Source: Corallococcus macrosporus DSM 14697 (GTDB lineage Bacteria > Myxococcota > Myxococcia > Myxococcales > Myxococcaceae). From it: DNA of 64,000 nucleotides. The notes under the pieces were generated by a model. It did not search any database, was not told the DNA's origin, and saw nothing but the letters and a program-made list of their open reading frames with translations. The stretch spans positions 8,590,001 through 8,654,000 of the forward strand of contig NZ_CP022203.1 in assembly GCF_002305895.1 (NCBI RefSeq). The letters are read 5' to 3'. Shown one piece after another: positions 3,160 to 48,235 of this stretch (position 1 is the stretch's first letter; each line of letters opens with the position of its first letter). A program made the translations under genes and the position numbers.

Positions 3160-4176
3160 ATGGACCTTTACAATCTGACGCCCTTCACAGCGGGACGTTT
3201 CATATTCCTTGATGGAACGGGACGCGAATCGTTGTTGGTTGTCGTCAAGGCCACCTTCGCCCTACAGGAAGGCCGAGCCGTCATTGCGACAGCGCAGGCG
3301 CCGCTCACCCTGGCGGACGAGTACCGGGGAGAGCCCGCACGGTCGAGTCTGCTGCGCGCTTCCGACCTGGCGCCATTCAAGCCCGCGACGGATGTCCTCC
3401 TCGACGGATTCGCCTACACGGGCCGCCGATCCAGGACGGAGGTGCTAGTGGCGCTCCAGGTGGGGACCATCACCAAGGGCGTCCAGGTCTTCGGCGAACG
3501 CGTCTGGGATACCTCCTTCGGGATTCCTTCCCTGTCATCCCCCCGCCCCTTCGAACGCATGGAATTGACGTGGGAGCGGGCCTTCGGTGGCACCGACGAC
3601 AGCCATCCTGAGTACCCGGAGCGATGTGAGGCGAACCCCGTGGGGCGGGGCTTCCGCTCCACGCGCTCCCGCCGAGGACTGGATGGACTGCCCCTGCCCA
3701 ATCTGGAGGACCCCCGGGCGCCGCTCCGCTCGACACGTGAGCGCCCCCTGCCTTGCGGCTTCGGCCCGCTGCCTCCACATTGGACGCCGCGCGCCCGCCT
3801 TGCCGGGACGTATGACGACACATGGCAGAAGGAGCGGCTCCCGCTGCTTCCAGAAGACTTCGATGAGCGCCACCACCTCGTGGCCCCTGCGGACCAGTGG
3901 TTGGCCGGGTATGTCCAGGGCGGCGAGCCGGTGAAGGTCGTCGGCGCCACGCCCGAGGGCGTGCTGGAGTTTCCGCTCCCGGCCCTGCTGCCGGAGGTTG
4001 TCGTCAAGCTGGGCGCCGCGCGCGAGACGCCGCCGTGCCGCTGCGACACCGTGCACATCGACTGCGAGCGCAAGCTGCTGACGCTCGTGTGGCGCGCGCG
4101 GTGTGGCATCCATGGCCGGGTGCCCTCCTTGCATTGGGTCAAGGTACAGCTCGCGCGAGGCGCCCATGTCGCGTGA
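3160..4176 (+). CDS. DUF2169 T6SS effector chaperone/adaptor
   Basis: A 338-residue protein with the hallmark start NLTPF close to the N-terminus and the family pattern of a beta-rich N-terminal half (ESLLVVVKATF) and an aromatic, Pro-rich centre (WERAFGG, HPEYPERCEANPVGRGF). DUF2169 proteins are encoded next to PAAR/DUF4150 cargo and are thought to help load effectors on the T6SS spike. It is first in module A and overlaps the next gene by 11 bases (ATG at 4166, stop at 4176), so translation is probably coupled. The effector two genes downstream is the obvious client. Family call is firm; the role is from family knowledge. Confidence 0.88.
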   Translation: MDLYNLTPFTAGRFIFLDGTGRESLLVVVKATFALQEGRAVIATAQAPLTLADEYRGEPARSSLLRASDLAPFKPATDVLLDGFAYTGRRSRTEVLVALQVGTITKGVQVFGERVWDTSFGIPSLSSPRPFERMELTWERAFGGTDDSHPEYPERCEANPVGRGFRSTRSRRGLDGLPLPNLEDPRAPLRSTRERPLPCGFGPLPPHWTPRARLAGTYDDTWQKERLPLLPEDFDERHHLVAPADQWLAGYVQGGEPVKVVGATPEGVLEFPLPALLPEVVVKLGAARETPPCRCDTVHIDCERKLLTLVWRARCGIHGRVPSLHWVKVQLARGAHVA

Positions 4177-5251
4177 GCTCATCTGCGTCACGGGACTGGG
4201 AATGCGCACCCCCATCGGGCGTCACGCCGCCCAGTCCTGCGCGTCCCTGCGTGCCGGCCTGAAGCGCTTCACCCCCTGGCCTCACTTCGGCGTGGACGGG
4301 GCGGGCCAGGAAGGACTCACCGCTTCCTTCACCCGCCCGGACCTGGGGGATCGCTCCTGGGTGGAGAAGCTGCTCGACCTCGTGGAGATGCCCCTGGCCG
4401 AGGCCCTGTTCAGCGCCAGGCTGTTCGAACTGGCGCAGGGGGGGCATTCCGGCAGGCGAGTCCGGGTCCACGTCTACCTGGGGACGCCCTACCCTGACCG
4501 GCCGGGCGTTTCCCCGGAGGACCTGCAGGAGCTCACCCTCCACCTCGCGGAGGACCTCTTTCCCCAGGCCCCGGAGTCACTCCGGGTACAGCTCGTCTCG
4601 CTGGAGCATGTGTCCGGGCTGGCTGGCATCGCCTGGGCCAGCGCCGCCCTACAGGACGGCGCGGCGGACGTCTGCATCGTCGGAGGAGTGGACTCGCTGC
4701 TGGACAGCACCTTCTTGCAGGCGCACCTGGAGGCGGAGCGCCTTAAAATCCCGGGCGTCAGCTCCGGAATCATCCCAGGAGAGGCCGCCGCCTTCCTCGT
4801 CCTGGAGCGCAAGTCAGACGCCCGCCGTCGCGGAGTGCCCCTGTTGGCGCATGTCGACGCGGTCGCTCTGGAGCAGGAGCCGCCCTGGACACCGGAGGCC
4901 CCGGTACGGGGTCAGGCGCTGACCCGGGCCCTGCAAGCGGTGCTGGCGACCGTGGGAGGCGCGGACGGCTTCGGTCACGTCATCAATGACTTGAACGGAG
5001 AGCGCTGGCGCTTCCTCGAATGGGCCCTCATCGAGACACGCTGTCTGGGAGGCCTACCCCGGGGCTGGCGCCTTTGGCATCCCGCAGACAGTCTCGGTGA
5101 CGTGGGCGCCGCCTCGGCATCCGTGGCCGTGGGGCTGGCCCTGCATGCTTTTCAGCGCGGCTACGCACGGTGTCCGCGCATCCTGATTGCGTCCACTTCG
5201 GAGCGCGGCGAACGGGCCGCGATCTCTCTTTCTCAGACAGGAGGGCGTTGA
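4166..5251 (+). CDS. Beta-ketoacyl-synthase-like protein lacking the catalytic triad (T6SS module A)
   Basis: A 361-residue thiolase-fold protein. It keeps the ketosynthase scaffold: CVTGLGMRTPIG at the start, ADVCIVGGVDSLLD in the middle, and GEAAAFLVLE. The nucleophile Cys region reads EHVSG, with His148 where KAS II has Cys. The two catalytic His positions are also changed: the stretch equivalent to NAHGTST reads INDLNGERW (Asp275), and the one equivalent to GHLLGAAG reads LGDVGAAS near residue 311. It is therefore unlikely to condense acyl chains. A paralogue with the same DLNGE and GDVGAAS motifs sits in module B (43201-44328). I infer a structural or recognition role in effector delivery. 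The ATG at 4166 overlaps the DUF2169 stop, and the end overlaps the next start (TGATG). Confidence 0.85.
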   Translation: MSRELICVTGLGMRTPIGRHAAQSCASLRAGLKRFTPWPHFGVDGAGQEGLTASFTRPDLGDRSWVEKLLDLVEMPLAEALFSARLFELAQGGHSGRRVRVHVYLGTPYPDRPGVSPEDLQELTLHLAEDLFPQAPESLRVQLVSLEHVSGLAGIAWASAALQDGAADVCIVGGVDSLLDSTFLQAHLEAERLKIPGVSSGIIPGEAAAFLVLERKSDARRRGVPLLAHVDAVALEQEPPWTPEAPVRGQALTRALQAVLATVGGADGFGHVINDLNGERWRFLEWALIETRCLGGLPRGWRLWHPADSLGDVGAASASVAVGLALHAFQRGYARCPRILIASTSERGERAAISLSQTGGR

Positions 5252-6699
5252 TGCCTTCAACTGTGGTCGTGAACCACCTGACGGTCGTCCACAAGGACAG
5301 TGGGGGCGTCTCCATGGCGTTCCCGGACGTTTGCAAGACGCCCTCGCCCGCCGGCCCCGTTCCCATTCCCTATCCCAACGTGGCGCAGTCGGCGGACACC
5401 GCCAGCGGCAGCCGGACCGTCACCGCGGATGGTAATCCCTTCATGCTCAAGTCCTCGCACTTCGCGACGAGCACGGGGGACGAGGCTGGCAGCGCCATGG
5501 GCGTGGCCTCGAACAAAATCAAGGGCAAGGCCTACCCGAAGATGTACTCCTTCGACGTGAAGGTCGAGGGGCAGAATGTCTTCCGCCTGTCGGACATCAT
5601 GTTGCAGAACGGCGGCTCTCCCACCAACACTCCGCCCGCGTCGGAGGTGCAGGCGAACACGCTCGCCAGCGGCGCCAGCGCCAACCAGGTCAAGGACCCG
5701 GAGGAGCCGGAAGTGGTGAAGCTGGCGTGGGCCCGCACCGACGCATGCTGCGGGGACGAGGCCACCCTTAACGTCCAGACGAAGAACTGCCCGCCGGAGC
5801 AGTCGCTCGCGGTGCGCGTCCACCGCGCGGGCAACCCCAAGTCCGTCGTCGGTACCCTCGAGGCGAAGCTCGCCGGCAACAAGGCCAACCCGCGATGGCT
5901 GACGCGACGGGGGGCATTTCAGAAGGAGGTGAAGGTCACCGCCCGACAGGAGCTGTTCAAGGGCCAGCAGTCCTCCAGCAAGGACCTGTTGCTGAAGGCC
6001 CCCGAGCCCGTCGCGAAGCAGTTGGTGGGCCCGAAGACCATCCAGACGCCGAAGTTCGTCAAGAAGGTCATCCTGGGCAAGCAGAAGTGGGTCAAGGACA
6101 CCACGACCTATTACGCCTGGGAGGCCTGCTACGACATCGAGCTGAAGACGGGAGAGCTGGTGGTGACGCGGAAGGTGGACTTCGACCTCCAGCCCGGGGC
6201 GCTCAGCACCGCTCAGCGGCGGCGGGCCTGGAAGAAGGAAGTCGAGCGGGTCTGGGACAACCGCTACCGGCTGCACCGTATCAAGTGCAAGCGGGGCAAC
6301 AGCTGCGCCTGCTCCAGCAAGAATGGCTGCTGCTCGTTCCGCATCCGCATCAAGTGCCGCTGGGGCCAGGGGCACGGCCAGAAGGTGAAGCTCTACGCGG
6401 GGGCCAATGACCCGTCACAGTGGGGCAAGCCCGGCAAGTGGTGGTTCTCCCATGACTGGTGGGAGAAGCTCGCGGGCGTTCCGAAGACTGTGCGCGCCCA
6501 CGAATTCGGCCACCTCATCGGCATGTATGACGAGTATCCGGAAGGGGCCTGCGACCCGGCCCGGAAGTACACCAACATCCCCACCAGCGTCATGGCGAGC
6601 GGGGCCCGGGTCCTTCCCCAACACCTGAAGGCGTTCCATGACTGGTTCGACGCGAAGGTCAAGGGACTCATCGGGCCCACCCGCCTGCTGTCGCTCTAG
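5251..6699 (+). CDS. PAAR-like DUF4150 effector with C-terminal metzincin-type protease domain
   Basis: A 482-residue polymorphic T6SS effector. Residues 1 to about 125 form a DUF4150/PAAR-like spike tip (FPDVCKTPSPAGPVPIPYPN, then FATSTGDEAGS). A linker with Cys pairs follows. The C-terminal domain has HEFGHLIGMYD at residues 417-427, which fits the metzincin zinc motif HExxHxxGxxD with Asp as third ligand. Further on, TSVMAS could be the Met-turn. The toxin is therefore predicted to be a zinc protease. The start is chosen because AGGAGG lies 5-10 bases upstream of ATG 5251 and the start overlaps the preceding stop. The downstream gene encodes an exported protein, consistent with a toxin acting in the periplasm. 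The toxin activity is inferred from motifs. Confidence 0.85.
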   Translation: MPSTVVVNHLTVVHKDSGGVSMAFPDVCKTPSPAGPVPIPYPNVAQSADTASGSRTVTADGNPFMLKSSHFATSTGDEAGSAMGVASNKIKGKAYPKMYSFDVKVEGQNVFRLSDIMLQNGGSPTNTPPASEVQANTLASGASANQVKDPEEPEVVKLAWARTDACCGDEATLNVQTKNCPPEQSLAVRVHRAGNPKSVVGTLEAKLAGNKANPRWLTRRGAFQKEVKVTARQELFKGQQSSSKDLLLKAPEPVAKQLVGPKTIQTPKFVKKVILGKQKWVKDTTTYYAWEACYDIELKTGELVVTRKVDFDLQPGALSTAQRRRAWKKEVERVWDNRYRLHRIKCKRGNSCACSSKNGCCSFRIRIKCRWGQGHGQKVKLYAGANDPSQWGKPGKWWFSHDWWEKLAGVPKTVRAHEFGHLIGMYDEYPEGACDPARKYTNIPTSVMASGARVLPQHLKAFHDWFDAKVKGLIGPTRLLSL

Positions 6700-6703
6700 G
6701 CGG

Positions 6704-7711
6704 ATGGGCATGACAGGCTACCGGTGGGGAGTCCGCGGCCTGGGCTGGCTGCCACTGACGCTGGGACTCCTGGGCGCCGCGCCCACTGCCACGCGGAGCG
6801 AGGTGCGCCCCGTGTCGTCCCAGGGGCGACCTGACGCTGGAAGTCATTCCCAGTGCGAAGGAGACGTGATGAGCAAGGGTTACCTGGTGCTGTTCATGGA
6901 CCTGCCGAATGGCTCCCTGGGCGCCGCCTTTCCTCCGGCGGGCAAGGGCTCCGTGGACCTGTCGAACAACTTCTTGGGGCGGCAGGAGATTGGCTACTAC
7001 GAGGCCGAGCTGTCCCCGGGGACGTACGCGCGACTGAAGCAACTGCATGGCGGCATTGACTTCAGCGCCCTGCCGGTGACCACGGAGCTCCCGCCCGACA
7101 CGAAGACGGTGTCGGTGGGTGAGAGCTCCGACGGAGAGGACATCGACACGCGGACGTTTCCCCTCCACGCCGTCCCGGACGCACTGGAGCCGTTGCTGAA
7201 CGAGATGCGCAAGGCGGCCGAGCACATGCTGACGCGTCCGCTCCGGGTGCTGAGGGGAGAAGGCGCGCCGACCTCGCCGCGCTTCCCGCTGGAGAAGCCC
7301 GTCTCTTTCGAGGTCACGCTGCGCAACGTGGGAACCCAGGCCATCGAAACGGAGAACCCCTTCGTCCCCCATGCCCCGGACCGCACCAACCTCCGGCTGC
7401 TCGTGACGAAGGACAAGCAGCCCGGGCAGCTCCGGGAGGGGGACTCCCTGTGGATGGAGCTGGGGATGGAAAACGTGCACCCGCCAGAAGGTCAGAAGCC
7501 TCCCGAGGGCCGGCGCCTCACGATGAAGCCGGGCGCGGAGCTCCGCTTCGTGGTCCGCAAGAAGATGCTGAGCGCTCCTGGCCCCTACCGGGCCGCGCTG
7601 ACCTACTTCACCTCGCGCGGCGAGCGAGGCCTGGAGACGATGGAAGGCCAGCTCACCCTGGACTTGGGCCGCTTCGAGGTGGTCCAGTCCGCGCCGAACG
7701 CTCAGCCCTGA
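6704..7711 (+). CDS. Exported protein, probable immunity to the module A protease
   Basis: A 335-residue protein starting 4 bases after the effector stop. The N-terminus is a signal peptide (hydrophobic run GLGWLPLTLGLLGAAP), so the protein is predicted to cross the inner membrane. The mature part looks beta-rich, with a segment (VSFEVTLRNVGTQAIETENP) resembling an Ig-like/BsuPI-type fold. I do not recognise a named immunity family. Its position straight after a toxin-domain gene and its export make it the best candidate for the cognate immunity protein. ATG 6710 is an alternative start. Confidence 0.65.
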   Translation: MGMTGYRWGVRGLGWLPLTLGLLGAAPTATRSEVRPVSSQGRPDAGSHSQCEGDVMSKGYLVLFMDLPNGSLGAAFPPAGKGSVDLSNNFLGRQEIGYYEAELSPGTYARLKQLHGGIDFSALPVTTELPPDTKTVSVGESSDGEDIDTRTFPLHAVPDALEPLLNEMRKAAEHMLTRPLRVLRGEGAPTSPRFPLEKPVSFEVTLRNVGTQAIETENPFVPHAPDRTNLRLLVTKDKQPGQLREGDSLWMELGMENVHPPEGQKPPEGRRLTMKPGAELRFVVRKKMLSAPGPYRAALTYFTSRGERGLETMEGQLTLDLGRFEVVQSAPNAQP

Positions 7712-7721
7712 GATTTGGTCC

Positions 7722-8984
7722 ATGCTCGCTCGTGGTGAAGAGTGGATGGTCGACCTGCTGGAGGTGCATGTCGACGAGGTGGAGTGGCTGTGGCGGCAGC
7801 GGCAGGCTGCCTTGCGCTCCAAGGAGTACGACTTCCGCGCGCTCGTTCAGTTGGATGAGCGCATCACCGCCCATCTCGACGCCCTGGTCCTGGCCGGTGA
7901 AGAGGCCTGGGCGCTCCTTCGCACGCGCTTGGTCGATGCCGAGGACGCGTACGCCGCGTTTGGCGCCGCGCACGCCCTCCTCCTGCAGGAGGACGTGGCC
8001 GTGGCACGTCAGACGCTGGAGCTGTCCGCCGGGCTGGAAGGCGCCGCCTGGGAGGGCTTCAGGCTCGCCCTCCGCTACGCTCCCCCCGAGCGGCATGTGG
8101 ACGCCCTGAGGGGCCTCGTGGCGGGCGCGTCGGAACGTCATGCCGCCGCGGCCCTGGAGGCGCTTGCCTTCCATGGGCAGCCCGACCCGGGAGGCCGCCT
8201 CCTGGAGCTGCTGGGCTCCGTCGAGCCCGACGTTCGCCGCGCCGCGTGGGGGATCGTCGCGCTGCTGCCACTCCGGTGGCTCGAAGTCCCAGACCAAGCG
8301 CGCTTCCGGCAGCGCCTTGCCCAGCGCTTCCCGACTGCACTCGCAGACGCGTCCTTCCAGGTCCGGGACGCTGCCCGGTGGGCCGCCGCCTGGACACGGC
8401 AACCGTGGCTGCTCTCCAGCTTGAGGACGCTGGCGAAGACCCCGGCGTCTCCCGACCACGTTCCAGGCTTGAAGCTGCTGGCGGTGCTGGGGGCCCAGGC
8501 CGACCTCCCCCTCTTCGAGGAGGCCCTGGGGCGGCGGGAGCTGGGCCCCGAGCGGTTCCTGCTCGCTGGCACCTTCGGCCATCCCGGCCTCATTGAGGAG
8601 GTGCTTCGCGCCATGGAGTCCGGCGGGCCCGCGGTAGCGGCGGCCGCCGCCAGCTCGTTCCGGAAGCTGACGGGCCTTGATGTCAACACCGCCCATCGCG
8701 TCGCCGTCCTCCCCACCGAGGAACTGGAGGAGGATGCCTCCACGGAGGAGGTGCACATTCCAGATGCGGCCGCGGCTCGCAATCACTGGGGCCGCCTCAA
8801 AGGCGCCCTATCCGGGGTGCCCCGCCTCTGCATGGGCGCCGATGCCCTGAAGGGCTGGACGCAAGAGTGGCTGCGAGGGCTGCCCTTGGAAGCGAGGTGG
8901 GAGCATGCGCTCCGGGAGCACTTCGAAATGGGACGGGGCGGAGACGTGCTCGCCCTCGAGCGGTTTCCTCAGCTACCGGAGTGA
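7722..8984 (+). CDS. TIGR02270-type HEAT-repeat protein (T6SS module A)
   Basis: A 420-residue all-helical protein made of HEAT-like repeats (for example AAFGAAHALLLQED, VRRAAWGIVALLPL, HVPGLKLLAVLGAQ). The start matches the TIGR02270 pattern of a charged helical N-terminus with an EEWMVDLLEVHVDEVEWLWRQR-like region. A short acidic segment (EELEEDASTEEV) precedes the C-terminal part. TIGR02270 proteins are found in T6SS-linked loci of Proteobacteria and probably act as scaffolds. It starts 10 bases after the immunity gene and ends module A. A paralogue is in module B (44325-45668). Confidence 0.8.
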   Translation: MLARGEEWMVDLLEVHVDEVEWLWRQRQAALRSKEYDFRALVQLDERITAHLDALVLAGEEAWALLRTRLVDAEDAYAAFGAAHALLLQEDVAVARQTLELSAGLEGAAWEGFRLALRYAPPERHVDALRGLVAGASERHAAAALEALAFHGQPDPGGRLLELLGSVEPDVRRAAWGIVALLPLRWLEVPDQARFRQRLAQRFPTALADASFQVRDAARWAAAWTRQPWLLSSLRTLAKTPASPDHVPGLKLLAVLGAQADLPLFEEALGRRELGPERFLLAGTFGHPGLIEEVLRAMESGGPAVAAAAASSFRKLTGLDVNTAHRVAVLPTEELEEDASTEEVHIPDAAAARNHWGRLKGALSGVPRLCMGADALKGWTQEWLRGLPLEARWEHALREHFEMGRGGDVLALERFPQLPE

Positions 8985-9017
8985 GCGCCAACGCCCGCGC
9001 GCGCCGTCGACCGATGC

Positions 9018-9248: not shown

Positions 9249-9370
9249 ACGCGCGACCATCGCCGAGCACAGCCCCGTCCGTCTACAACCCACTCGGCAC
9301 TCCGTCCACCGGACAGCTACGTTCGGCCAGACGAATGATGTCGATGCGGCAAGTTCCGGTGTTGCTCTTG

Positions 9371-26536: not shown

Positions 26537-26613
26537 GAGGAGCCGGGCGCACCACCGCGCGGGGGCACCAGGCGGGTGTCGACAGCGCGGTGGTGAGTGG
26601 TTACAAGGCCACG

Positions 26614-29283: not shown

Positions 29284-29375
29284 TGTTGCTGAGCACGGTG
29301 GTTGAGGGAGACCGGCCGGATTTCGGACCGACTCGTTGATGGGAAGCGGGCGCGAGCGGACGAATTGCCCATCAG
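29284..29375. repeat. Left-end subterminal repeats of the transposon
   Basis: The left end carries GGTTGAGGG near 29300, CGTTGATGGG near 29334 and a complementary CCCATCA near 29367, separated by CCGGCCGGA and related blocks. The right end has the same GTTGATGG words. Spaced repeats of this kind are typical transposase binding sites. Confidence 0.55.
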
Positions 29376-29522
29376 CGAGCCGGATTCTTGCGAGTCACCG
29401 TCGTTGAGGTCCGCTGGCGCACCGTAGAGAGGGCGGGGCGCAGCGTGGAGCTGCTACCGCGGCTGGAGCGAGCCGGCGGCGAGTAGGCGGTGGGAGGGGT
29501 GTGGCGACACCCCTACCCACCA

Positions 29523-30173: not shown

Positions 30174-30318
30174 GGGGCTGCCCACGCCTCCGAGTGCGCG
30201 GCACCCCCGCCTTCCCTTCCCACCCGACAGCCCCGCTGCGCACCCTCCTGGGGCCCCGGCACCTTCCCGGCCCTGGCCCGCCCTCTCATTCCTCGCGGCG
30301 GGCTGCCTGGAGGAGTGC

Positions 30319-31683
30319 ATGGACGAGCTGTCTCCCAATTCTCACGCAGAGGCCGTGGCCGTCTTTCGCCACGGCGTCATCGGCGCCCTGACTCAAGCCG
30401 AGCTCGACCGCGGCCAGTTGGCGGCGGCGCTTTCGCAACTGGCCACCCAGCGCTTCCGGCCCCCTGGGGCGGACGCGACGCGCAGCTTCTCGGTGCCGAC
30501 GCTGGAGCGGTGGTACTACGCCTTTCGCAGGCGAGGACTGGCGGGACTGACGCCCCAGCCTCGGCGCGACAAGGGCCGGGCGCAGGAGGTGCCGGGGCCG
30601 CTGCGCGAATTGCTGTGCGACATCCGCCGCGAGCACCCTTCGGCGTCCGTCGCCCTCATTTTGCGCACGCTGGTGGCCGACGGGCGCATGCAGGGGGGCG
30701 CCGTCTCCGCTTCCACCGTCCGCCGCCTCTTCCACCAGGAGGGCCTGGACAGGGTGGCCCTGCGCGACTCGGCGGGGAGCCGCACGCGCCTGAGGTGGCA
30801 GGTGGAGCGCCCCATGGCCCTGTGGCACGGGGACGTCTGCCACGGCCCCGCGCTCGAGGTAGGCGGCAAGTCCCGCCCCCTGCGCGTGCACGCCCTGCTG
30901 GACGATGCCAGCCGCTACGTCGTGGCCCTGGAGGCCCACCACTCCGAGAGGGAGGTGGACATGCTGGGCCTCTTCGTGCGCGCGCTGCGCCGTCACGGCA
31001 AGCCGGACGCCCTCTACCTGGACAATGGCGCCACCTACCGGGGGGACACCCTGGCCACCGCGTGCGCGCGTCTGGGCATTTCCCTCTTGCACGCCAGGCC
31101 CTATGACGCGCCCGCGCGCGGGAAAATGGAGCGCTTCTGGCGCACGCTGCGGGAGGGCTGCCTGGACTTCCTGGGGCCGGTGGCCAGCCTCCACGACGTC
31201 AATGTCCGGCTGTGGGCCTTCCTCGACGCGCACTACCACGCCGCCGCGCACTCGCGTCTCGTCGGCCGCACGCCCGCGTCCGTCTTCGGGGCCCACCCGC
31301 GCGCGCCGGACGGCCTGGACGAGAAGGCCCTGGCCGACGCGCTCACCGTGCGCATTCGCCGGCGCGTACGGCGAGACACCACCGTGGCGCTGGACGGCGT
31401 GGACTACGAGTTGGACGCGGGCCACCTGGCCGGACGCCTCGTCTTCCTCTGCCGCACCCTGGTGGACGCCGACGCGGCGCCCTGGGTGGAAGTGGACGGC
31501 CAGCGGCTGCCCCTGCACCCGGTGGACGCGGTGCGCAACGCCCGCAGAGAGAGGCCCTACCGCAAACCGCACCTCGACGAGACGGCCCCACGCCACCCGG
31601 CCTTCGCGCCGGCCCAGGCGCTGCTGGACAGGGCTGTCGGCCGCCCTCCCGCGCACGCGCAGCAGGACGGAGGTGACGAATGA
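30319..31683 (+). CDS. DD35E transposase/integrase (rve fold), transposon gene 2
   Basis: A 454-residue transposase. The N-terminal 140 residues hold helix-turn-helix segments (FSVPTLERWYYAFRRRGLAGL, and SASTVRRLFHQEGL). The RNase H-like core has Asp172 (LWHGDVCHG), Asp235 (LYLDNGATY) and Glu271 (GKMERFWRTLRE), with exactly 35 residues between the second Asp and Glu. The C-terminal region has a small beta-barrel-like segment (VALDGVDYELDAGHLAGR) as in Mu/TniA/IS481-type enzymes. ATG 30319 has AGGAG upstream. It overlaps the ATPase gene by ATGA. Confidence 0.9.
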   Translation: MDELSPNSHAEAVAVFRHGVIGALTQAELDRGQLAAALSQLATQRFRPPGADATRSFSVPTLERWYYAFRRRGLAGLTPQPRRDKGRAQEVPGPLRELLCDIRREHPSASVALILRTLVADGRMQGGAVSASTVRRLFHQEGLDRVALRDSAGSRTRLRWQVERPMALWHGDVCHGPALEVGGKSRPLRVHALLDDASRYVVALEAHHSEREVDMLGLFVRALRRHGKPDALYLDNGATYRGDTLATACARLGISLLHARPYDAPARGKMERFWRTLREGCLDFLGPVASLHDVNVRLWAFLDAHYHAAAHSRLVGRTPASVFGAHPRAPDGLDEKALADALTVRIRRRVRRDTTVALDGVDYELDAGHLAGRLVFLCRTLVDADAAPWVEVDGQRLPLHPVDAVRNARRERPYRKPHLDETAPRHPAFAPAQALLDRAVGRPPAHAQQDGGDE

Positions 31684-32495
31684 CGCCCGCGTACCTGGGC
31701 CACTTCGGCCTCACCTTCGCGCCCTTCTCCAAGGAGGTTTCGGACGCGGACTTATGGCTGCCCACCTCCAAGGCCGCCCTCGTGGAGGAGTTGGGCGAGG
31801 CCCTGCGCAACCGCGCCAGCGTCGTGCTCACCGGCGAGCCGGGCGTGGGCAAGACGTGTGTCTTGCGAGCGCTGCGACACCGGCTGCCTGCCCAGGGCTT
31901 CCGTCTGACGTACTGTCACAACGCCACCCTGGGCCGCCGCGACTTCTACCGCCAGCTGTGCCTGGCGCTCGGCCTCAAGCCGTCGGCCACCGCGGCCGCC
32001 GTCTTCTACTCGGTGACGACTCACGTCGAGCAACTGGGCGCCGAGAAGCTGCACCCCGTCTTCCTGCTGGACGAGGCCCACCTGCTCCACCAGGACGTGC
32101 TGGACCACCTCCACATCCTCCTCAACTACCAGTGGGACTCACGCGCGCTGCTCTCGCTCATCCTCGTCGGGTTGCCCGAGCTGGAGTCACGCATGGTGCG
32201 CAGGCACAACCGCAGCCTCTACTCGCGCCTGCACACCCGGCTGCGCATTGAGCCACTCACCCCAGAGGACACCGCGGAGTACCTCCGGGTGCGGCTGGCC
32301 CGCGCTGGGTGCGACCGCGAACTCTTCGCCTCGGACGCACTCGCCATGCTGCACGAGGCGGCCAGTGGCGCGCTGCGTGACGTGGACCGGCTCGCCACGG
32401 CGGCGCTGCGCGAGGCCGCTCGGCGAAGGAAGAAGCTGGTGGAGCGCGACGTGCTGGCCCGCGTGCTCGACACCGTCGGAATCGACGAGCCGTAG
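31680..32495 (+). CDS. ExeA/TniB-like AAA ATPase, transposon gene 3
   Basis: A 271-residue AAA+ ATPase. The start GHFGLTFAPFSKEV is the ExeA-type entry. Walker A is LTGEPGVGKTCVL near residue 50, Walker B is VFLLDEAHLLH near residue 122, sensor-like ILVGLPELESRM follows, and the C-terminal helical lid ends the protein. By analogy with TnsC, TniB and MuB it should bind target DNA and activate the transposase. Its start overlaps the transposase stop. No TniQ, resolvase or cargo gene is present. Confidence 0.88.
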   Translation: MTPAYLGHFGLTFAPFSKEVSDADLWLPTSKAALVEELGEALRNRASVVLTGEPGVGKTCVLRALRHRLPAQGFRLTYCHNATLGRRDFYRQLCLALGLKPSATAAAVFYSVTTHVEQLGAEKLHPVFLLDEAHLLHQDVLDHLHILLNYQWDSRALLSLILVGLPELESRMVRRHNRSLYSRLHTRLRIEPLTPEDTAEYLRVRLARAGCDRELFASDALAMLHEAASGALRDVDRLATAALREAARRRKKLVERDVLARVLDTVGIDEP

Positions 32496-32584
32496 AGTTT
32501 GAAAGCATCACGGGCTTGCGCGCTACGCGCGCTCGCCCTTGATGTCCATCACGCTGCGCGGCGCGCTGACGCGCGCCTCCAGCG

Positions 32585-32637
32585 ATGGCCATCAACCAGC
32601 CGGATTACCCGGCCATCAACAAAGCTGCGCGGCAACA
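32585..32637. repeat. Right-end subterminal repeats of the transposon
   Basis: Two copies of GGCCATCAAC (complement GTTGATGGCC) are separated by CAGCCGGATTACCC, giving a small palindrome CCGG-ATTA-CCGG-like core, and end in AAAGCTGCGCGGCAACA. The matching words at the left end point to transposase binding sites. A diverged copy of this whole end lies at 9018-9076. Confidence 0.65.
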
Positions 32638-33948
32638 GTAATGGTCCAGCCCCAGCTCCCCCTTGAGGTCTTCGTAGACGCGCTCGGTTCTCCATCGCTG
32701 CATCACCAGACGGATGAGCTGCCGCTTCGTTCGTCCTTCTGGCAGGGAAATCAGGAAGTAGTTGGCGGGCTCGGGCTCGCCGTCTCGCCATTCAATGAGC
32801 AACGTCAGGGGCTCCTGCTCGCGCTGGGGGACGCCCGCGGCGACGACGCGGCGCAGGGCAAAGCGTGCTGACAAGGCGTCTTGCGTGCCCTGGCGCCAGG
32901 TGCACCGTCGGAAGCCGCCTCGTTCATGAATGCGCCAGGCCAGGTCCGAAACGCTTTGCGCGTCCTTTCGAGGACGGCCCTTCGCGTCCAGGAGGCGGAC
33001 GCCCGTTTGCGCAGCCACCGCGACGGCGTAATGCAAGCCCAGCGCGCGAAGGCGCGCACGGAAGTCGCTGGAGTTGCCGTAGGCGCTGTCCGCCAGGAGG
33101 ACTCCTGGCGCCACGCCGTCCTCCACGGCCCGCTCAATCATTCGCAGCGCCAGTTGAGGCTTGGTTTGGAAGGAAACCTCGGCGGGAATTCGGGCCTCGC
33201 GGCGGCGCGCCTCGTCGTTGGCCCAGCACTCGGGGAGGTACAGCTCGAAGTCGAGGGGCAGGTGCTCGGTACGCGTGGCCACGCTGAGGCTGACGCCAAT
33301 CTGGCAGTTGGCCACCTTCCCCGCCGAGCCGGTGTACTGCCGCTGGACACCCACCGAGTGCTTGCCCTGCTTGAGGAAGCCCGTGTCGTCCACAATCCAC
33401 GCTTCCACCGACTCCCGCCGCGTCATCGCCTCCAGCGCGTACCTCGCCGCCTGGCGCCGCACCTCCCGGTCGCTCCACCTCGAGTCCACCGCGAAGTGCA
33501 ACAGTCGCTGGTGCATGGCATCCACCCGCTCGGGGTCCGGACACGCCCGGGCGGCGATGGGCTCCACGCTCTTGCGCTCCCCCTCGCCCAGCAGCCCCAT
33601 GGCGTAGAGGGCGAACGAGCCGCGTCGGCTCTCCTCGCCCAGCACCTCGCCGATTTGCTGGAAGTACCTCTCAAGCCGCTGCACCGCAGCGGCGTTCATG
33701 AAGGTGTCCATATCTCCTTCATGAGTGGGGCCGCTGGTGGCAGATGCAACCATGACCTGCCAGCCCAGCCCTCCATCACCCACTCCCCCTTCGGCCTACC
33801 CCTGACGCAGTAGTGTTAAGTACGGCACTAAAGACTCCTGAACGAATCCAAAACGGAGCAGGAATGGGCAAGGCCCCTGCATTCGTCTCGGAACTTGTGG
33901 CTACCCATTTAGAATGAGCTGGGGGCGAGCTCCGTCGACGCTGCGGGG

Positions 33949-42293: not shown

Positions 42294-42398
42294 CGGCCCG
42301 AGACACCATGCAACGACGCCCCCGCTCCCCCATCGACCAGGTGCCCGCATGACGCTCCCCGAGCCACAGGCGGGTGGGCACACGAGGCGACACGCACC

Positions 42399-43166
42399 TC
42401 AGTCGGCGTCCATCCACGCGTCTTCACCCAGTGGCGTCCGGTGCGGCTCGCGTGCGAGTGACGGGATGTGGAGATAGTCCTCCTCGGTCTCCAAGCCGTT
42501 GCGCTCAGCCAGCCGCACCAGCGCCAGTCCCTCAAGAGAGAAGCTCCACTCGGTCGCGAGGAACTCCTCGGGGAAGGGGGCGGTCCGCGCCTGCGCCTCC
42601 AGCCGGTCCTTCCGCTCCGAGAGGAACACCCCGAGCGCCTGATTGAAGCCCTCCGAGTCCGCCTGAAGCAGGGCCCTGCACACGTCGAACCGCAGGTCCT
42701 CCGCGCCTCTCAGCGCGCGCTCGTAGCGCATGAGGAGGTCCTCGCAAGCCGCCACCGGCGCATCCAGCACGCCATGCTGGATGACGAACTCGACGAAGAG
42801 AAAGTCCTCCTCGTACTCCTCGCCCTGCGTCCAGGTCCGCCTCGCCCGCTGTGCAATCAGCGCCGCGCCGTGGAAGTCGCCGGCCCCCACCGCGTCGAAG
42901 AGGGGCCGCGAGCGGCTCAGCCGCAGGTCGGCGCTCCCAACCTCGCGCAGATGGTGCGCGAAGGCCCGGCCGCTCTGCTGGAGGCGCTGGAGGAAGGGCT
43001 CGGAGGTGCCCGTCAGGAAGAGCGCGCCGATGCCCGCGAGGCGGAGGTTGTCACAGAACGTCAGGATGTGACGCGCGCTCCCCGCCCTGCGGACGAGCAC
43101 CCGGCGCAGCGCCCGGTTCTGGTGCAGGGCGTTCTCGATGACAGCGGGCAGGAAGCGGGAGGCCAT
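42399..43166 (-). CDS. Imm49-family immunity protein
   Basis: A 255-residue all-helical protein with the Imm49 pattern: a long alpha region, ALLQADSEGFNQALGVFLSERKDRL, then FLATEWSFSLEGLALVRLAERNGL and DYLHIPSLA near the C-terminus (family form: ...LP...LALAALA...RG...DYLP..L). Imm49 proteins protect against polymorphic toxins in the recipient cytoplasm. The AHH toxin of module B already has an Imm11 partner, so this one is probably a second immunity gene from a lost or foreign toxin. It starts 34 bases after the KS-like stop. Confidence 0.68.
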   Translation of the reverse strand: MASRFLPAVIENALHQNRALRRVLVRRAGSARHILTFCDNLRLAGIGALFLTGTSEPFLQRLQQSGRAFAHHLREVGSADLRLSRSRPLFDAVGAGDFHGAALIAQRARRTWTQGEEYEEDFLFVEFVIQHGVLDAPVAACEDLLMRYERALRGAEDLRFDVCRALLQADSEGFNQALGVFLSERKDRLEAQARTAPFPEEFLATEWSFSLEGLALVRLAERNGLETEEDYLHIPSLAREPHRTPLGEDAWMDAD

Positions 43167-43200
43167 GGGCGCACCTCGGTGCGGGGAGGAGGGGCGGGCT

Positions 43201-44328
43201 TCAGGCCCCCGTGGAGTGAAGCCGGAGACAGCCCACGGCGCCCCAGGGGGAGCTGGAGACCACCAGGGACTGCGCGGTCCGGGAGTGCCCCCGGGTGAAG
43301 GCGTGGACCGACAGGCAGACCCCCAGCGCCCCGCTCGCGGCGCCGACGTCCCCGACGGAGACACAAGGGAGCTGGACGCCATGCGCGCCCAGCGCGTCTC
43401 CCAGGCGGACGAGCGCGGTTCCCCACTCCCGCGCGCGCCACTCCTCGCCGTTCAAGTCGGAGTAGAGGTCCCCCTCGAAGCGCGCCGGGACCGGGCCGCG
43501 CGCGAGCACCTCGCGGAGACAGGCCGCGAGCCCCGCCCCCTGGCTGACATGCCCCGCGTACAGGTGCAGGCGCTCCTCGGCGGTGGCCACGCCCGTCACC
43601 AGGGCAAGCGGCGCCGCGCCGCGCCTGCGTACCGCCTCCTCCTGTTCCAGGAGAAAGCACGCCCCGGCCTCGCCCGGCATCAGGCCCACCGGGTTGTCGC
43701 CCACCTTGAGCCGCCCCTCCTCGTCGAGCATCCGCAGCGCCTCCGGGTCCACCAACGAGTCGACCGCGAGCACGAGGACCCGCTCGAAGCCGGCCCGCCA
43801 CAGCTCGCCCGAGGCCTGCTGGACCGCGGTCGCCGTCCCCGCTGGCCCCTGGTCCACCACCCACACCTTCGCGTCGGGGAGGGCCAGCCCCAGCGCGTCG
43901 AGGAGCGGACGGAGGCAGTCCTCTCGGATGCCCTCCAGGCCATCGTCCCCCTCCAGCTCGAAGAGCCCATCATCCCGGGAAGGAATGACCATCAGTAGGC
44001 CCGCGCGGTCCCAGAACCTCGCGTCGGAGGGGCGCGGAAGTCCCGGCGTCTCCAGCACCTCACCGAGGCAACCGCGCGCCAGCCGCAGCCACCGCCCCAT
44101 CCCCACGAAGCCGTCCGTATAGCCCTGGATGGGATGCGCGGTGAGCGGCACGGTGTCCTGCGTCTCCGGCTCCAGCACCTGGAAGTGGCTCACCCTTCGA
44201 GGGCGGGAGATGCCCGCCCGGATGGCGGCGCACGACGCAGCGGCGCCGCGCCCCACCGACGTCACGGCCCCGATGGCGGTGATGACGCCGAGCACGTCTC
44301 GCGGTGGGGCCTCGCGTGGGGCGCTCAT
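43201..44328 (-). CDS. Beta-ketoacyl-synthase-like protein lacking the catalytic triad (T6SS module B)
   Basis: A 375-residue thiolase-fold protein, paralogue of the module A protein. The ketosynthase scaffold shows in VITAIGAVTSVGRGAAAS, VLVLAVDSLVDPEAL and GEAGACFLLEQEEA. Where KAS II has the Cys loop this reads DQGPAG, with no Cys. The DLNGEEWRAREW motif near residue 291 and VGDVGAASGA near 326 replace the two catalytic His blocks. The matching changes in both modules argue for selection of a non-catalytic role. It overlaps the HEAT gene by ATGA, so equal amounts of the two proteins are likely. Confidence 0.85.
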   Translation of the reverse strand: MSAPREAPPRDVLGVITAIGAVTSVGRGAAASCAAIRAGISRPRRVSHFQVLEPETQDTVPLTAHPIQGYTDGFVGMGRWLRLARGCLGEVLETPGLPRPSDARFWDRAGLLMVIPSRDDGLFELEGDDGLEGIREDCLRPLLDALGLALPDAKVWVVDQGPAGTATAVQQASGELWRAGFERVLVLAVDSLVDPEALRMLDEEGRLKVGDNPVGLMPGEAGACFLLEQEEAVRRRGAAPLALVTGVATAEERLHLYAGHVSQGAGLAACLREVLARGPVPARFEGDLYSDLNGEEWRAREWGTALVRLGDALGAHGVQLPCVSVGDVGAASGALGVCLSVHAFTRGHSRTAQSLVVSSSPWGAVGCLRLHSTGA

Positions 44329-45668
44329 GAAATCATCCACCCATCGAAGCCACGCGTGAGCCGCTCCAGCGACCGCGCCCTGGCGGCCCGGAGCCGCGCG
44401 CGCTGGTGTCCGCACCAGCCGCGGGGCTCCACCTGGCAGGCCCCTCGGCTCCTGACGGCCAACTCGAAGGCCAGCGCCGGACGGTGACGCATCGGCGCCA
44501 GGTGCAGGGCCTGGAGCAACGCCTCGGGCGTCCACGGCGCGCCAGCCCGGTAACGGCCCTCCGGGTCGAAGCGCTCGCGAGCCTGGGCCCACCACCGCGC
44601 CACCTCGGCCACGCGAACCTGGCCGGAGCGGTGCTCGGGCGGAGGCAGGAGGGAGGACACGGCTTCGGAAGGCGAAGCCACCTCGTCCTCGTCCTCATCC
44701 TCCGCGCGAATGAAGAGGTCCTCCGGGGGTAGACCGGTGATGACGGAGAAGGTTCGCAGGGCCAGCCACGCCACCTCCGGCGCCCGCGCCTTCAACACCT
44801 CCAAGGCCGCCTCCGCCGCCGCCATCCGGCCACTGAAGCCGAGCGCCCACAGGGCCTCCGCTCGCCGCTCGGGCCGGTCCAACGTCCGCACCAGCCGCTC
44901 CACGTCGGCGTGCCCCCCGCCAACCGCCAGCGCGAGCATCGCCAGGCGAGGCTCCGGTCCCTCTGTCGCGAGCGCCTGACAGGACTGCCAGGCCGCGCGC
45001 AGTCCACGGAGCAGCCCGGCTTCAATGGCGGCGTCACGCACACGGGGGCGGGGGTCCTCCAGCCCCTTGCGAAGCCACGCCGCCAGAACCGGCGGCTGCG
45101 TCACCCGGGCGGCGCGGAAGGCGGCGGCGAGGAGCGCTGGCTCCGTGTCCGCCAGGGCAAGGCGCTCCAGGAGTGGGCCCGCGTCGACCTGCCGGAAGGC
45201 GAGGACGTCGAGCAGCTCGGCCTGGAGCGCTGGCGCCAATCGCGGCAGCAGCTCGAGCAGCGCGGCGTCCAGCGCCGGGGGCTCGCCCAGCGCCAACGCA
45301 TGCCCCAGCCAGGGGCGCCGCGCTCCGTCCTCCTCCCACCGCGCCAGGACCAGCGCCTGCTCTCCAGCCGCGAGCAGCACGGAAGCGGCGGACACCACCC
45401 GCCCGGGCTCATCGTCCTCCAGCGCGGGCCGGAGCAGCCGGAGCGCGACGGGCGGCCCTCCCACCCGGAGCCCGTCCAGATGGGCTCGCAGCCGGGCCTC
45501 GTCGCCCGCTTCGACTTCAGACAGGGTGAAGTCAGAGGCGCCCATTGCCCGCGCTCGCTGTGCCCAGAGGAAGCTGGCCTCCTCCAGGTGCTCCGTGAGC
45601 ACGTCCCACAGCAGGGGCGGACGGCGCGGCGCGGTGCGAGCGGCGGATGGACGGAGGGCCGTGTTCAT
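44325..45668 (-). CDS. TIGR02270-type HEAT-repeat protein (T6SS module B)
   Basis: A 447-residue helical-repeat protein. The start LLWDVLTEHLEEASFLWAQR and the successive Ala/Leu-rich repeats (SAASVLLAAGEQALV, LLAAAFRAARVTQPP, VRDAAIEAGLLRGL, EALWALGFSGRMAAAEAAL) match the module A HEAT protein. An acidic stretch (EDEDEDEVASPSE) comes before the C-terminal part, as in module A. It overlaps both Imm11 (ATGA) and the KS-like gene (ATGA). It is probably a scaffold for effector assembly. Confidence 0.82.
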   Translation of the reverse strand: MNTALRPSAARTAPRRPPLLWDVLTEHLEEASFLWAQRARAMGASDFTLSEVEAGDEARLRAHLDGLRVGGPPVALRLLRPALEDDEPGRVVSAASVLLAAGEQALVLARWEEDGARRPWLGHALALGEPPALDAALLELLPRLAPALQAELLDVLAFRQVDAGPLLERLALADTEPALLAAAFRAARVTQPPVLAAWLRKGLEDPRPRVRDAAIEAGLLRGLRAAWQSCQALATEGPEPRLAMLALAVGGGHADVERLVRTLDRPERRAEALWALGFSGRMAAAEAALEVLKARAPEVAWLALRTFSVITGLPPEDLFIRAEDEDEDEVASPSEAVSSLLPPPEHRSGQVRVAEVARWWAQARERFDPEGRYRAGAPWTPEALLQALHLAPMRHRPALAFELAVRSRGACQVEPRGWCGHQRARLRAARARSLERLTRGFDGWMIS

Positions 45669-46264
45669 TCCCTTGGCTCGTCGCTGAAGCGCAGCTCCGT
45701 CCAATGGACGTTGGTGAGCTTCCGGTCATACAGCTCCCGCGCCAGCTCGCGTCCAATGACATACTCGGCCGGGTCCCCCTCCACACGGAAGAGCTGGGGC
45801 GCGCGCTGCATCTTCGCGCGGTCCAGGACGTACTCGCGAACGCGGAGGATTTTCTTGGGGGCCTTCGTGCTCCAGCCGATGTCACTCGCCTCGAGGTCGA
45901 GGCAGTCGAAGGTGCCTATTGGATTGATGATGGTGTAATCGTCGCTGTAGGGGCGATTGCGGTGGTCGTAAATCGTGACGGGGAGATATTCAATCTCGTT
46001 CGTGCAGTGTTTCTGGATGGCCTCCTTGAACGCGGAGGAGACAATCAGCATGCTCCTTCCGTTGCCAATCAGCGCCGACAGCTTGATACCTGGGTGCTCC
46101 GGGCTCATGGGGAGGCGGGCGTCCTTCGGATAGATGGAACCCAACCGCTCGCCGAGGTGGGTGGCATAGGACTTGCCCTCAATCCCCTCGACGAACTGGG
46201 TGAGGAAGCAGAGGTCCCGGTTGTTGGCGTTTCCCATCGTTTCGAGCAGGCGGAATCGCATCAT
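45665..46264 (-). CDS. Imm11-family immunity protein, partner of the AHH toxin
   Basis: A 199-residue protein of the Imm11 (formerly DUF1629) family. Recognised blocks are SALIGNGRSMLIVSSAFKEAIQKH, YTIINPIGTFDCLDLEASDI, RVREYVLDRAKM, LFRVEGDPAEYVIGRELARELYDR and a final TELRF. It starts 33 bases after the AHH toxin stop and is translationally coupled to the HEAT gene. Base composition is a little less GC-rich than the delivery genes, as is the toxin, suggesting that toxin and immunity are the exchangeable part. Cytoplasmic location fits a nuclease inhibitor. Confidence 0.85.
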   Translation of the reverse strand: MMRFRLLETMGNANNRDLCFLTQFVEGIEGKSYATHLGERLGSIYPKDARLPMSPEHPGIKLSALIGNGRSMLIVSSAFKEAIQKHCTNEIEYLPVTIYDHRNRPYSDDYTIINPIGTFDCLDLEASDIGWSTKAPKKILRVREYVLDRAKMQRAPQLFRVEGDPAEYVIGRELARELYDRKLTNVHWTELRFSDEPRE

Positions 46265-46297
46265 TCGTCAGTCTCTTGAAAGGTGAGGTGCCCCGGC

Positions 46298-47185
46298 TCA
46301 CGGCGGTGGGCCCGTCAGCATGTCCACGCCCTTGTTCCGGCCCCCACTGAGAAATTCGTGGGGGATGTCCTCCAGCGCATCTCCCGCCATGGTGCCAGCC
46401 TTCATGGCCTCGCCAGCCGCGATGATCTGCGGTTGGACCTCCATTGAAAGCAACTCCACTGCCTCCCGCGTGGCCTGGTATTCCGGGACCTCATGCTCAG
46501 CGGCGGCCTTCTTGACCCAGGAGAAGCGCTTCCTCAGCTCCCTCTTGATGTACTCGCTATAGATCGCGTGGTGGAAATGGAGTGGCGTTCTACGGTGCAG
46601 AGGCAACCCCAGCGCCACTGCGGCGTACTTCACCATCGGGAGGATGATCATGTTGAGCTGACTGTTGAGATTGTAGCCCTCCCGCATCAGCCCTGAACGG
46701 ACAATCAATGGCACCCGGCCCCTGGGCTCGATGCCCTCGCCCGCTTCAGCCACCACGGCCTGGAGCTCCGCGTTGGCCACGATGTGATGAGCCTCATGGT
46801 AGAAGGGCGTCCGCGCGTGGGTCTCAAAGTTCCCGTCGGCCGTGAGGTCCCAGGCCCCCACGGTGTCGGGCTGTCTGTCGGCATCCGCCGGCCACGTGTA
46901 CTTCGCCGGGTTCTGCTGTGCCTTCAGCCGGGCCTGATGGCGGTGGCTGCATGGGTTGCTCGGGGTGTATGCGCTGATGTGCCGGTTGACGCAGCCATGC
47001 GCGTGGTCGTCGGAGATGTAGGAGCCCTCCCAGGAGTGGGGTGACGGCGGGGGCTTCGGCTTCTTCACGGCCGTGCCCTTCTTGTCCGCCGCCCCTCCTA
47101 CGCTGTGCCTCTTGCGGACCTTCGTCCTGAGCGGAGCCTTCTTGACCGTTCGTTTCCTGGTCGAGGTCCGCGGCATGTTCACCAT
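46298..47185 (-). CDS. AHH-family nuclease toxin
   Basis: A 295-residue toxin. The N-terminal 50 residues are Lys/Arg/Pro-rich, a likely loading or linker region. The nuclease domain has YHEAHHIVANAE with AHH at residues 132-134, GYNLNSQLNMIILP near 170-183 and PLHFHHAIYSEYI near 201-213, the pattern of the AHH subgroup of HNH/EndoVII nucleases. ATG 47185 is preferred because GGAGG lies 5 bases upstream; ATG 47197 is also in frame. It lies between the DUF6484 gene and the Imm11 gene and should ride on the DUF4150 spike tip as a separate polypeptide. Confidence 0.85.
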   Translation of the reverse strand: MVNMPRTSTRKRTVKKAPLRTKVRKRHSVGGAADKKGTAVKKPKPPPSPHSWEGSYISDDHAHGCVNRHISAYTPSNPCSHRHQARLKAQQNPAKYTWPADADRQPDTVGAWDLTADGNFETHARTPFYHEAHHIVANAELQAVVAEAGEGIEPRGRVPLIVRSGLMREGYNLNSQLNMIILPMVKYAAVALGLPLHRRTPLHFHHAIYSEYIKRELRKRFSWVKKAAAEHEVPEYQATREAVELLSMEVQPQIIAAGEAMKAGTMAGDALEDIPHEFLSGGRNKGVDMLTGPPP

Positions 47186-47254
47186 GACTGCCTCCATGAG
47201 CACCGCGGCGCCCCGGGCCCTACCCCCTGCGCCAGCGACCTCCAGCGCGCCTGC

Positions 47255-47770
47255 TCAGTTGACCTGGACCTTCCCACCCTTGATGCGCTGCACCTGCTCC
47301 GCCTCGGTCTGGATGTTGACGCCACGCAGGATGACGTCCCCGTTGCGGCGCAGGGTGAGGCTCGCCTTCCCGCACTTGAGCGTGACTTCTTCCCGCGCCT
47401 CGAGCCGCACCTGCTTGCCATCCACCCGGGCTTCCCGAGGCCCGGCGCCCAGCGAATCAAGCAGGGCCTCCGTGAGCGGCGCGGAGAGGCTGCGCTGGAG
47501 GAGCCCGACGAGGACAGGCAGGGACGGGTCCCCGTTCTCGAAGAGCAGGAGCGCGCCCTGTCGCGCCACCGAAGCCCGCCGGATGACCTCCGAAGCCAGG
47601 ACCACCGTGGTGCGCGCCAGGAGCGGACCGCGCCGGTTGCCCTTGAAATCGACCCACAGCGCTCCGTCCGCGCTCGCCCCCGCCACCCACCCGACTCGCG
47701 GCGCGAGGATGGGCTCTTCGGAGACCATTGGTCCGGCGTGGGGCTTGCCACTGCGATTGGACGCATCCAT
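47255..47770 (-). CDS. DUF6484-like T6SS accessory protein
   Basis: A 171-residue protein with PRVGWVAGASADGALWVDFKGNRRGP and LARTTVVLASEVIRRA, then VLLFENGDPSLPVLVGLLQ, the pattern of DUF6484 proteins, which resemble the gp5/VgrG OB-fold region. The second half (VRLEAREEVTLKCGKASLTLRRNGDVILRG) is the beta-helix-like needle tail seen at the end of VgrG proteins. It probably joins spike and cargo. It starts 3 bases after the DUF4150 stop. Confidence 0.72.
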   Translation of the reverse strand: MDASNRSGKPHAGPMVSEEPILAPRVGWVAGASADGALWVDFKGNRRGPLLARTTVVLASEVIRRASVARQGALLLFENGDPSLPVLVGLLQRSLSAPLTEALLDSLGAGPREARVDGKQVRLEAREEVTLKCGKASLTLRRNGDVILRGVNIQTEAEQVQRIKGGKVQVN

Positions 47771-47773
47771 GGC

Positions 47774-48235
47774 TCAGCGCTCTTTCCCACAGGTGTCGCA
47801 GGGACGTTTCTCGGGTGGCACGCCGAGCCCGGCGACGGGTGGCTGCATCAGCGGCGTGGGAGGCGTGTTCCTGTCGTTGTGCAACATGAGGTCGAAGGCG
47901 CGCGCCACGCTCTTGCCCTCGAACTGCACATCGAAGGAGAAGTTGACGAACTCGGCCTTGCCCCGGGTCGTCCCTGAAACCACGCCTCCCACCGAGCCCG
48001 CCTCGTCACCGGTGCTCGTGCTGAAGTTCGAATCCCTCACACAAACCGGGTTGCCTTCCACGGAGACCTTCTTGCTCCCCTGTTCGGTATCCGCGGACCT
48101 GGCGACGTTTGGATAGGGGATGGGCACCGGCCCCGCTGGGCCTGGCGTCTTGCACACGTCTGGGAAGGCGACGGTGACACCCTTGGAGTCCTTGGTGACA
48201 ACCGACATCTTGTTCACGCCAACGGTATTGGCCAT
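47774..48235 (-). CDS. PAAR-like DUF4150 protein (T6SS module B)
   Basis: A 153-residue stand-alone spike-tip protein. It shares with the module A effector the blocks VAFPDVCKTPGPAGPVPIPYPN, STSTGDEAGS and VQFEGKSVARAFDLMLHN, and ends with a Cys pair (CDTCGKER). Unlike module A, no toxin domain is fused; the AHH toxin is encoded two genes downstream. It is the first gene of the module B operon. The upstream 940 bases hold no other gene. Confidence 0.88.
   Translation of the reverse strand: MANTVGVNKMSVVTKDSKGVTVAFPDVCKTPGPAGPVPIPYPNVARSADTEQGSKKVSVEGNPVCVRDSNFSTSTGDEAGSVGGVVSGTTRGKAEFVNFSFDVQFEGKSVARAFDLMLHNDRNTPPTPLMQPPVAGLGVPPEKRPCDTCGKER

What the first reader, a model, noticed from the sequence alone, without database searches (positions are those of the whole stretch)
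3160..48235. Paralogous ketosynthase-like proteins without any catalytic residue occur in both T6SS effector modules
The proteins at 4166-5251 and 43201-44328 keep the KAS scaffold but lack the nucleophile Cys (His or Gly-containing loops instead) and both catalytic His. Both carry the same replacement motifs, DLNGExWRxxEW and GDVGAAS. Each is translationally coupled to T6SS parts (DUF2169 and DUF4150 in A, HEAT in B), while the toxins differ. Shared new motifs in place of the active site suggest a repurposed fold with a specific job in effector loading, not decay. I know of no described role.
Basis: partly seen in the sequence, partly recalled or inferred. Interest (0 to 1): 0.8.

Follow-up and report, generated by a model that had tools for sequence, protein, structure and literature searches.

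The report
Dead ketosynthase adaptors of toxin modules
A predatory soil bacterium carries 14 copies of a protein that looks like a fatty-acid-building enzyme but has lost its active site; it belongs to a recently named helper family (TvpD) for loading toxins onto the type VI secretion spike, and here it comes in two ancient versions, one of which is often fused to a second helper and travels with the toxin genes.

Summary
Both proteins (A 4166-5251 +; B 43201-44328, minus strand) have a confidently predicted KAS fold without Cys-His-His and share the replacement motifs. They are not roleless unknowns: both are sub-threshold relatives of PRK06147, named TvpD in 2026 and modelled as a co-chaperone of DUF4150/PAAR-like tips. 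The finding's neighbourhood test was run: 105 of 124 TvpD genes in 18 Myxococcota genomes lie within 8 kb of DUF4150, TIGR02270, DUF2169 or DUF6484 genes; Cys is absent from the nucleophile site in 134/134 sequences. What looks new is a Myxococcota clade (the B copy) that largely dispenses with DUF2169, sits directly behind or is fused to the TIGR02270 HEAT protein (12 unbroken fusion ORFs in 9 genomes), pairs with stand-alone DUF4150 proteins ending in a CxxC tail and free AHH toxins with Imm11/Imm49, and also occurs as TvpD-toxin-immunity cassettes with none of the other parts. That points to a toxin-facing adaptor. No interaction was tested. New variant of a known kind.

The parts
3160..4176 (+). 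DUF2169 protein (TvpA), module A
   Evidence: Pfam PF09937 E 1.3e-99
4166..5251 (+). TvpD copy A: catalytically dead KAS-fold protein, DUF2169-coupled form
   Evidence: NF004798 E 2.5e-67, model and fold search
4601..4618 (+). LEHVSG: nucleophile Cys replaced by His148
4988..5023 (+). DLNGERWRFLEW in place of the first catalytic His motif
5096..5116 (+). GDVGAAS in place of GHxxGAAG (second catalytic His to Asp)
5251..6699 (+). DUF4150 (PAAR-like) protein with C-terminal HEFGH extension, presumed toxin of module A
   Evidence: PF13665 E 1.6e-38, motif
6869..7711 (+). unassigned protein between toxin and HEAT gene, position of an immunity gene
   Evidence: no family hit; role inferred from position
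7722..8984 (+). divergent TIGR02270 HEAT-repeat protein, module A
   Evidence: TIGR02270 E 6.6e-35, below its cut-off
42399..43166 (-). Imm49 immunity protein, module B
   Evidence: PF15575 E 8.3e-12
43201..44328 (-). TvpD copy B: catalytically dead KAS-fold protein, HEAT-coupled Myxococcota clade
   Evidence: NF004798 E 4.6e-45, model and fold search
43333..43353 (-). GDVGAAS of copy B
43423..43458 (-). DLNGEEWRAREW of copy B
43837..43854 (-). DQGPAG: nucleophile Cys replaced by Pro162
44325..45602 (-). TIGR02270 HEAT-repeat protein, module B, directly upstream of TvpD
   Evidence: TIGR02270 E 1.3e-66, above cut-off
45665..46264 (-). Imm11 immunity protein
   Evidence: PF07791 E 4.6e-10
46298..47203 (-). 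free-standing AHH nuclease toxin
   Evidence: PF14412 E 9.8e-07
47255..47770 (-). DUF6484 protein (short TvpC)
   Evidence: PF20093 E 1.1e-17
47774..48235 (-). stand-alone DUF4150 protein with ~30-residue tail ending RPCDTCGKER (CxxC)
   Evidence: PF13665 E 4.9e-42, tail

Best explanation
Both proteins are TvpD-type pseudo-ketosynthases: a KAS fold that lost Cys-His-His and now serves as a non-catalytic adaptor when DUF4150 tips and their toxins are assembled for the type VI spike. Copy A is the DUF2169-coupled form: DUF2169 (TvpA) shields the hydrophobic DUF4150 tip, TvpD sits beside it, and the toxin is fused to the tip. Copy B is a Myxococcota form whose direct partner is the HEAT protein, with or without fusion; it joins a free AHH toxin to a stand-alone DUF4150 tip, after which the tip passes from DUF6484 (TvpC) to VgrG. 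Shown here: family, fold, loss of active site, conserved replacement motifs, gene neighbourhood, fusion, two clades. Inferred: physical binding, the hand-over, cargo specificity, not being secreted itself.
For: NF004798 is the best family for both. Confident KAS-fold models. 0 of 134 sequences have Cys at the nucleophile site and none keeps a triad, while the Gly before Asp/Glu and PGE are near-invariant. 12 of 14 copies in this genome lie by DUF4150 and TIGR02270 genes. In Caballeronia plasmids the order is (VgrG-)DUF6484-TIGR02270-DUF2169-TvpD-PAAR-like-downstream genes; in rhizobia and Paracoccus DUF2169-TvpD-PAAR-like lies next to T6SS core genes. HEAT-TvpD fusions in 9 genomes. Published pre-complex model for PA0096-PA0097-PA0098-Tse7.
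Against: No interaction was tested or predicted here. The published TvpD role rests on AlphaFold models of Pseudomonas proteins, not on TvpD mutants. Both window proteins score below the NF004798 cut-off. VgrG genes are far from all modules in this genome, so use of its T6SS is inferred.
Confidence: 0.75

Rival explanations
1. TvpD is only a co-chaperone of the DUF4150 tip, acting with DUF2169, as in the published Class II model; it has no contact with the toxin.
For: AlphaFold model of PA0097-PA0098 forming a groove around the Tse7 PAAR domain. Where DUF2169 is directly upstream, TvpD directly precedes the DUF4150 gene in 37 of 43 cases.
Against: 55 of 76 TvpD genes outside the DUF2169-adjacent group have no DUF2169 in the stretch examined. 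19 loci are TvpD-AHH-Imm11-Imm49 with no DUF4150, HEAT, DUF2169 or DUF6484. In non-A modules DUF4150 is nearly constant (mean distance 0.17) while TvpD and toxin diverge (0.65, 0.74).
Confidence: 0.35
2. The fold keeps a non-condensing activity: it binds an acyl chain or another small ligand in the old pocket and modifies or anchors the effector.
For: The replacement motifs DLNGE and GD/E lie at the old active site and are strongly conserved, as a new site would be.
Against: No nucleophile; the old Cys position is variable (His, Arg, Asn, Pro, Ser, Ala and others), unlike a catalytic site.
Confidence: 0.1
3. The proteins are decaying copies of a fatty-acid or polyketide synthase carried along with the modules.
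For: Active site lost; a few copies are broken by stops or frameshifts.
Against: Most copies are intact, motifs are conserved across phyla, operon coupling and HEAT fusion recur, and the family tree is structured by module type.
Confidence: 0.03

Closest known systems
TvpD / PRK06147 (PA0098 of P. aeruginosa; Class II Tvp complexes, PMC13373197)
   Same: Best family for both proteins; gene lies between DUF2169 and the DUF4150 effector in module A; DUF6484 present in module B.
   Different: Published classes all share DUF2169; module B lacks it and module A lacks DUF6484 in cis. Word searches of the main text found no thiolase, ketosynthase, ketoacyl, armadillo or catalytic; HEAT-TvpD fusion and PAAR-less TvpD-toxin cassettes were not met in the sections read.
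DUF2169 synteny type A (PMC11883445)
   Same: Lists thiolase-like, DUF6484 and armadillo-like genes with DUF2169 and DUF4150.
   Different: Defined by DUF2169; reports the precise roles of the extra genes as unknown.
KAS II / FabF and chain length factors
   Same: Whole-length fold.
   Different: Catalytic Cys and His residues absent; T6SS context.
Tap/DUF4123 and Eag/DUF1795 adaptors
   Same: Works like them: effector-specific loading helper encoded beside its cargo (description).
   Different: Different families; their folds were not compared here.

Membership tests
NCBIfam NF004798 (PRK06147.1 equivalog) | score at or above 342 bits | tested here: not met
   227.5 and 154.3 bits, full-length matches
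TvpD (co-chaperone of DUF4150 tip, Class II) | PRK06147-type protein | tested here: met
   Best NCBIfam match for both, E 2.5e-67 and 4.6e-45, though below the equivalog cut-off
TvpD (co-chaperone of DUF4150 tip, Class II) | gene between DUF2169 and DUF4150 genes | tested here: inconclusive
   Met for copy A; not met for copy B, which has no DUF2169 in module B
TvpD (co-chaperone of DUF4150 tip, Class II) | DUF6484 TvpC in the module | tested here: inconclusive
   Met for B; none at module A, the nearest is that of module B, about 44 kb away
TvpD (co-chaperone of DUF4150 tip, Class II) | binds the DUF4150 domain together with TvpA | not testable with these tools
   No complex prediction available
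Catalytic KAS/ketosynthase | KAS fold | tested here: met
   VIA Z 40.4 and 38.1 to FabF
Catalytic KAS/ketosynthase | Cys-His-His triad | tested here: not met
   Cys 0/134; no sequence with a triad

The most novel reading that the evidence does not exclude
In Myxococcota a DUF2169-independent kind of spike-loading complex exists in which a HEAT protein and a dead ketosynthase, often one polypeptide, form the adaptor that brings a free, cognate AHH toxin to a generic DUF4150 tip carrying a CxxC tail; TvpD is the cargo-specific part, so TvpD-toxin-immunity cassettes can be delivered by tips and HEAT proteins encoded elsewhere.
Probability: 0.4. Interest if true: 0.65.

Novelty: new variant of a known kind. 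Interest (0 to 1): 0.5.

Why it matters
How one T6SS picks among many toxins is open. If the dead ketosynthase is the cargo-specific part, its sequence would predict which toxin a DUF4150 tip can carry and would mark toxins that lie outside known spike loci. The HEAT-TvpD fusion gives a single, stable handle for structural work on a complex whose TvpD-containing form is known only from models.

Tried and rejected
Alignment of all 14 copies was too diverse for the search for related loci; a three-row alignment was used. An apparent second fusion partner in the Acidobacteriota locus L034 was a low-complexity open frame without a domain, not a fusion. Two of the 14 'fusion' loci (L089, L102) have a broken HEAT frame and are not counted as fusions. 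Pearson co-divergence (TvpD with toxin 0.81, Imm11 0.84, HEAT 0.55, DUF4150 0.09; 33 modules) suggested strong toxin specificity, but rank correlations over all non-A modules are much closer (0.41, 0.49, 0.28, 0.36), and linkage of neighbouring genes could produce them; they are not used as proof. A shared Cys-rich start in the free toxins matched only 23 of 71 downstream proteins, several of which are not toxins, so no motif is claimed. The fusion protein was not folded because loci from the fetch from genomes are not on the stated list for structure prediction.

Full report
Observation. The two ORFs are as described, B on the minus strand. Pfam sees PF00109 in A (E 5.8e-09) and no KAS family in B, but NCBIfam gives PRK06147 (NF004798) as best family for both over nearly the full length: 227.5 and 154.3 bits, below the 342-bit cut-off. 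AlphaFold2 models of A and B have pLDDT 91.6 and 90.9 and superpose on FabF structures along the whole chain (Z 40.4 and 38.1). Aligned with this genome's own FabF, the nucleophile becomes His148 in A and Pro162 in B, and the second His becomes Asp (GD for GH). For the first His the alignments differ between Asp and Asn of DLNGE; in A and B no His is at either place.

Family-wide check. In 134 distinct sequences, mostly Myxococcota, the Cys site holds His 62, Arg 22, Asn 15, Pro 10, Ser 7 and others, never Cys; the second His site is Asp 83, Glu 38, His 7. The seven sequences that keep that His have no Cys. In 19 sequences a His stands one place along from Asp in the DLNGE motif (DHNGE). PGE and the Gly before Asp are near-invariant. 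A newly conserved patch at the old active site argues against decay.

Genome. The window lies at 8,590,001-8,654,000 of a single 8.97-Mb contig. The genome has 14 TvpD copies (one given in two pieces), 8 DUF2169, 13 DUF4150, 4 clear DUF6484, 12 TIGR02270, 2 full VgrG and one TssC gene with a strong match at 5.92 Mb, near one VgrG. No VgrG is near any module. 12 of 14 TvpD copies lie within 8 kb of a DUF4150 and a TIGR02270 gene; with 13 DUF4150 genes in 8.97 Mb, chance would give well under one.

Neighbourhood across Myxococcota. Of 97 genomes, 18 have TvpD, 18 TIGR02270 and 20 DUF4150 at the thresholds used. 105 of 124 TvpD genes have at least one of the four partner families within 8 kb; conversely 81 of 90 TIGR02270, 104 of 114 DUF4150 and 69 of 75 DUF2169 genes have a TvpD within 8 kb. 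On the five proteobacterial plasmids read, TvpD lies between DUF2169 and the PAAR-like gene: next to T6SS core genes in Mesorhizobium, Rhizobium and Paracoccus, and behind DUF6484 and TIGR02270 in two Caballeronia.

Two forms. In the whole-genome set 43 copies have DUF2169 directly upstream (A), 22 have HEAT directly upstream (B) and 14 share a frame with HEAT (F); the rest are 6 behind DUF4150 (P), 16 otherwise near a partner (O) and 18 with none (X). Twelve F copies are full HEAT-TvpD fusions in unbroken ORFs of 834-1081 aa in 9 genomes, including this one (L022, 7.14 Mb). The tree separates most A copies from a supported group of 76 rows holding B, F, X and most others, plus two A-labelled copies; copy A of the window falls with Planctomycetota, Nitrospirota, Acidobacteriota and Nannocystis sequences, copy B with B copies of Myxococcus relatives (quick method, root arbitrary). 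Fusion needs at least three changes on the tree, so it arose or was lost more than once.

What goes with each form. Beside A copies the DUF4150 protein mostly has a long C-terminal extension (29 of 40, at least 100 aa); beside the others it is stand-alone in 55 of 56, and 53 of those 55 have CxxC in a tail of about 30 residues, while only 1 of 11 stand-alone DUF4150 proteins beside A copies does. Iterated local profiles seeded with AHH, Imm11 and Imm49 proteins, most of them checked with Pfam, find AHH in 70 of 76 non-A loci, Imm49 in 71 and Imm11 in 72, against 9, 2 and 11 of 43 A loci. X loci keep the order TvpD-AHH-Imm11-Imm49 in 19 cases; that count pools the two searches, so a few are the same locus twice.

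Mechanism. The published Class II model has TvpD and TvpA form a groove around the DUF4150 domain on a DUF6484 trimer before VgrG replaces it. Module A fits it except for the missing DUF6484. Module B does not fit 'all classes share DUF2169'. The PAAR-less cassettes and the near-constant DUF4150 tips suggest that in the Myxococcota clade TvpD faces the toxin and the HEAT protein is its scaffold. This step is inference: gene linkage alone could explain much of the co-divergence, and rank correlations do not separate the partners well. DUF2169 could also act in trans, as the genome has eight.

Literature. PRK06147 is in 4 papers of the library; one mentions it as a reported chaperone domain, one models it as TvpD. 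TIGR02270 together with 'type VI' is in none. The JBC paper mentions thiolase-like and armadillo-like genes of unknown role, and says that inactivating genes of a P. mirabilis type A cluster abolishes killing. The P. mirabilis mutants I could read are in pefD-G, and I could not establish that any of these is TvpD, so direct genetic evidence for TvpD was not found.

Limits. Counts include related genomes; contig ends may hide partners in draft genomes; gene starts are by eye; no complex was predicted.

Noticed in passing
56037-59627: CRISPR array (30 or more repeats, core GTGCTCAACGCCTTTCGGCATCACGGCGAGCGGGAC) beside cas2 and a cas4-cas1 fusion (59874-61832, minus), split by a DDE transposase gene at 57835-58905.
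   Followed up: partly
50458-52131: Lipoprotein-like start with a C-terminal Tox-REase-5 domain (E 7.7e-17), resembling (from memory) the SitA toxins of myxobacteria; 2 kb from module B.
   Followed up: partly
47774-48235; tails: Stand-alone DUF4150 proteins beside non-A TvpD end in a ~30-residue tail with CxxC; many DUF4150-toxin fusions have CxxC, often followed by His, at the junction. Possible metal-bound joint between tip and toxin.
   Followed up: partly
L034 7762-8820: Long low-complexity open frame upstream of a TvpD gene that mimics a fusion; a caution for high-GC genomes.
   Followed up: yes
   Followed up: no
26195-33711: Transposon-like genes by eye (an IS66-type set and others) between the two modules.
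   Followed up: no
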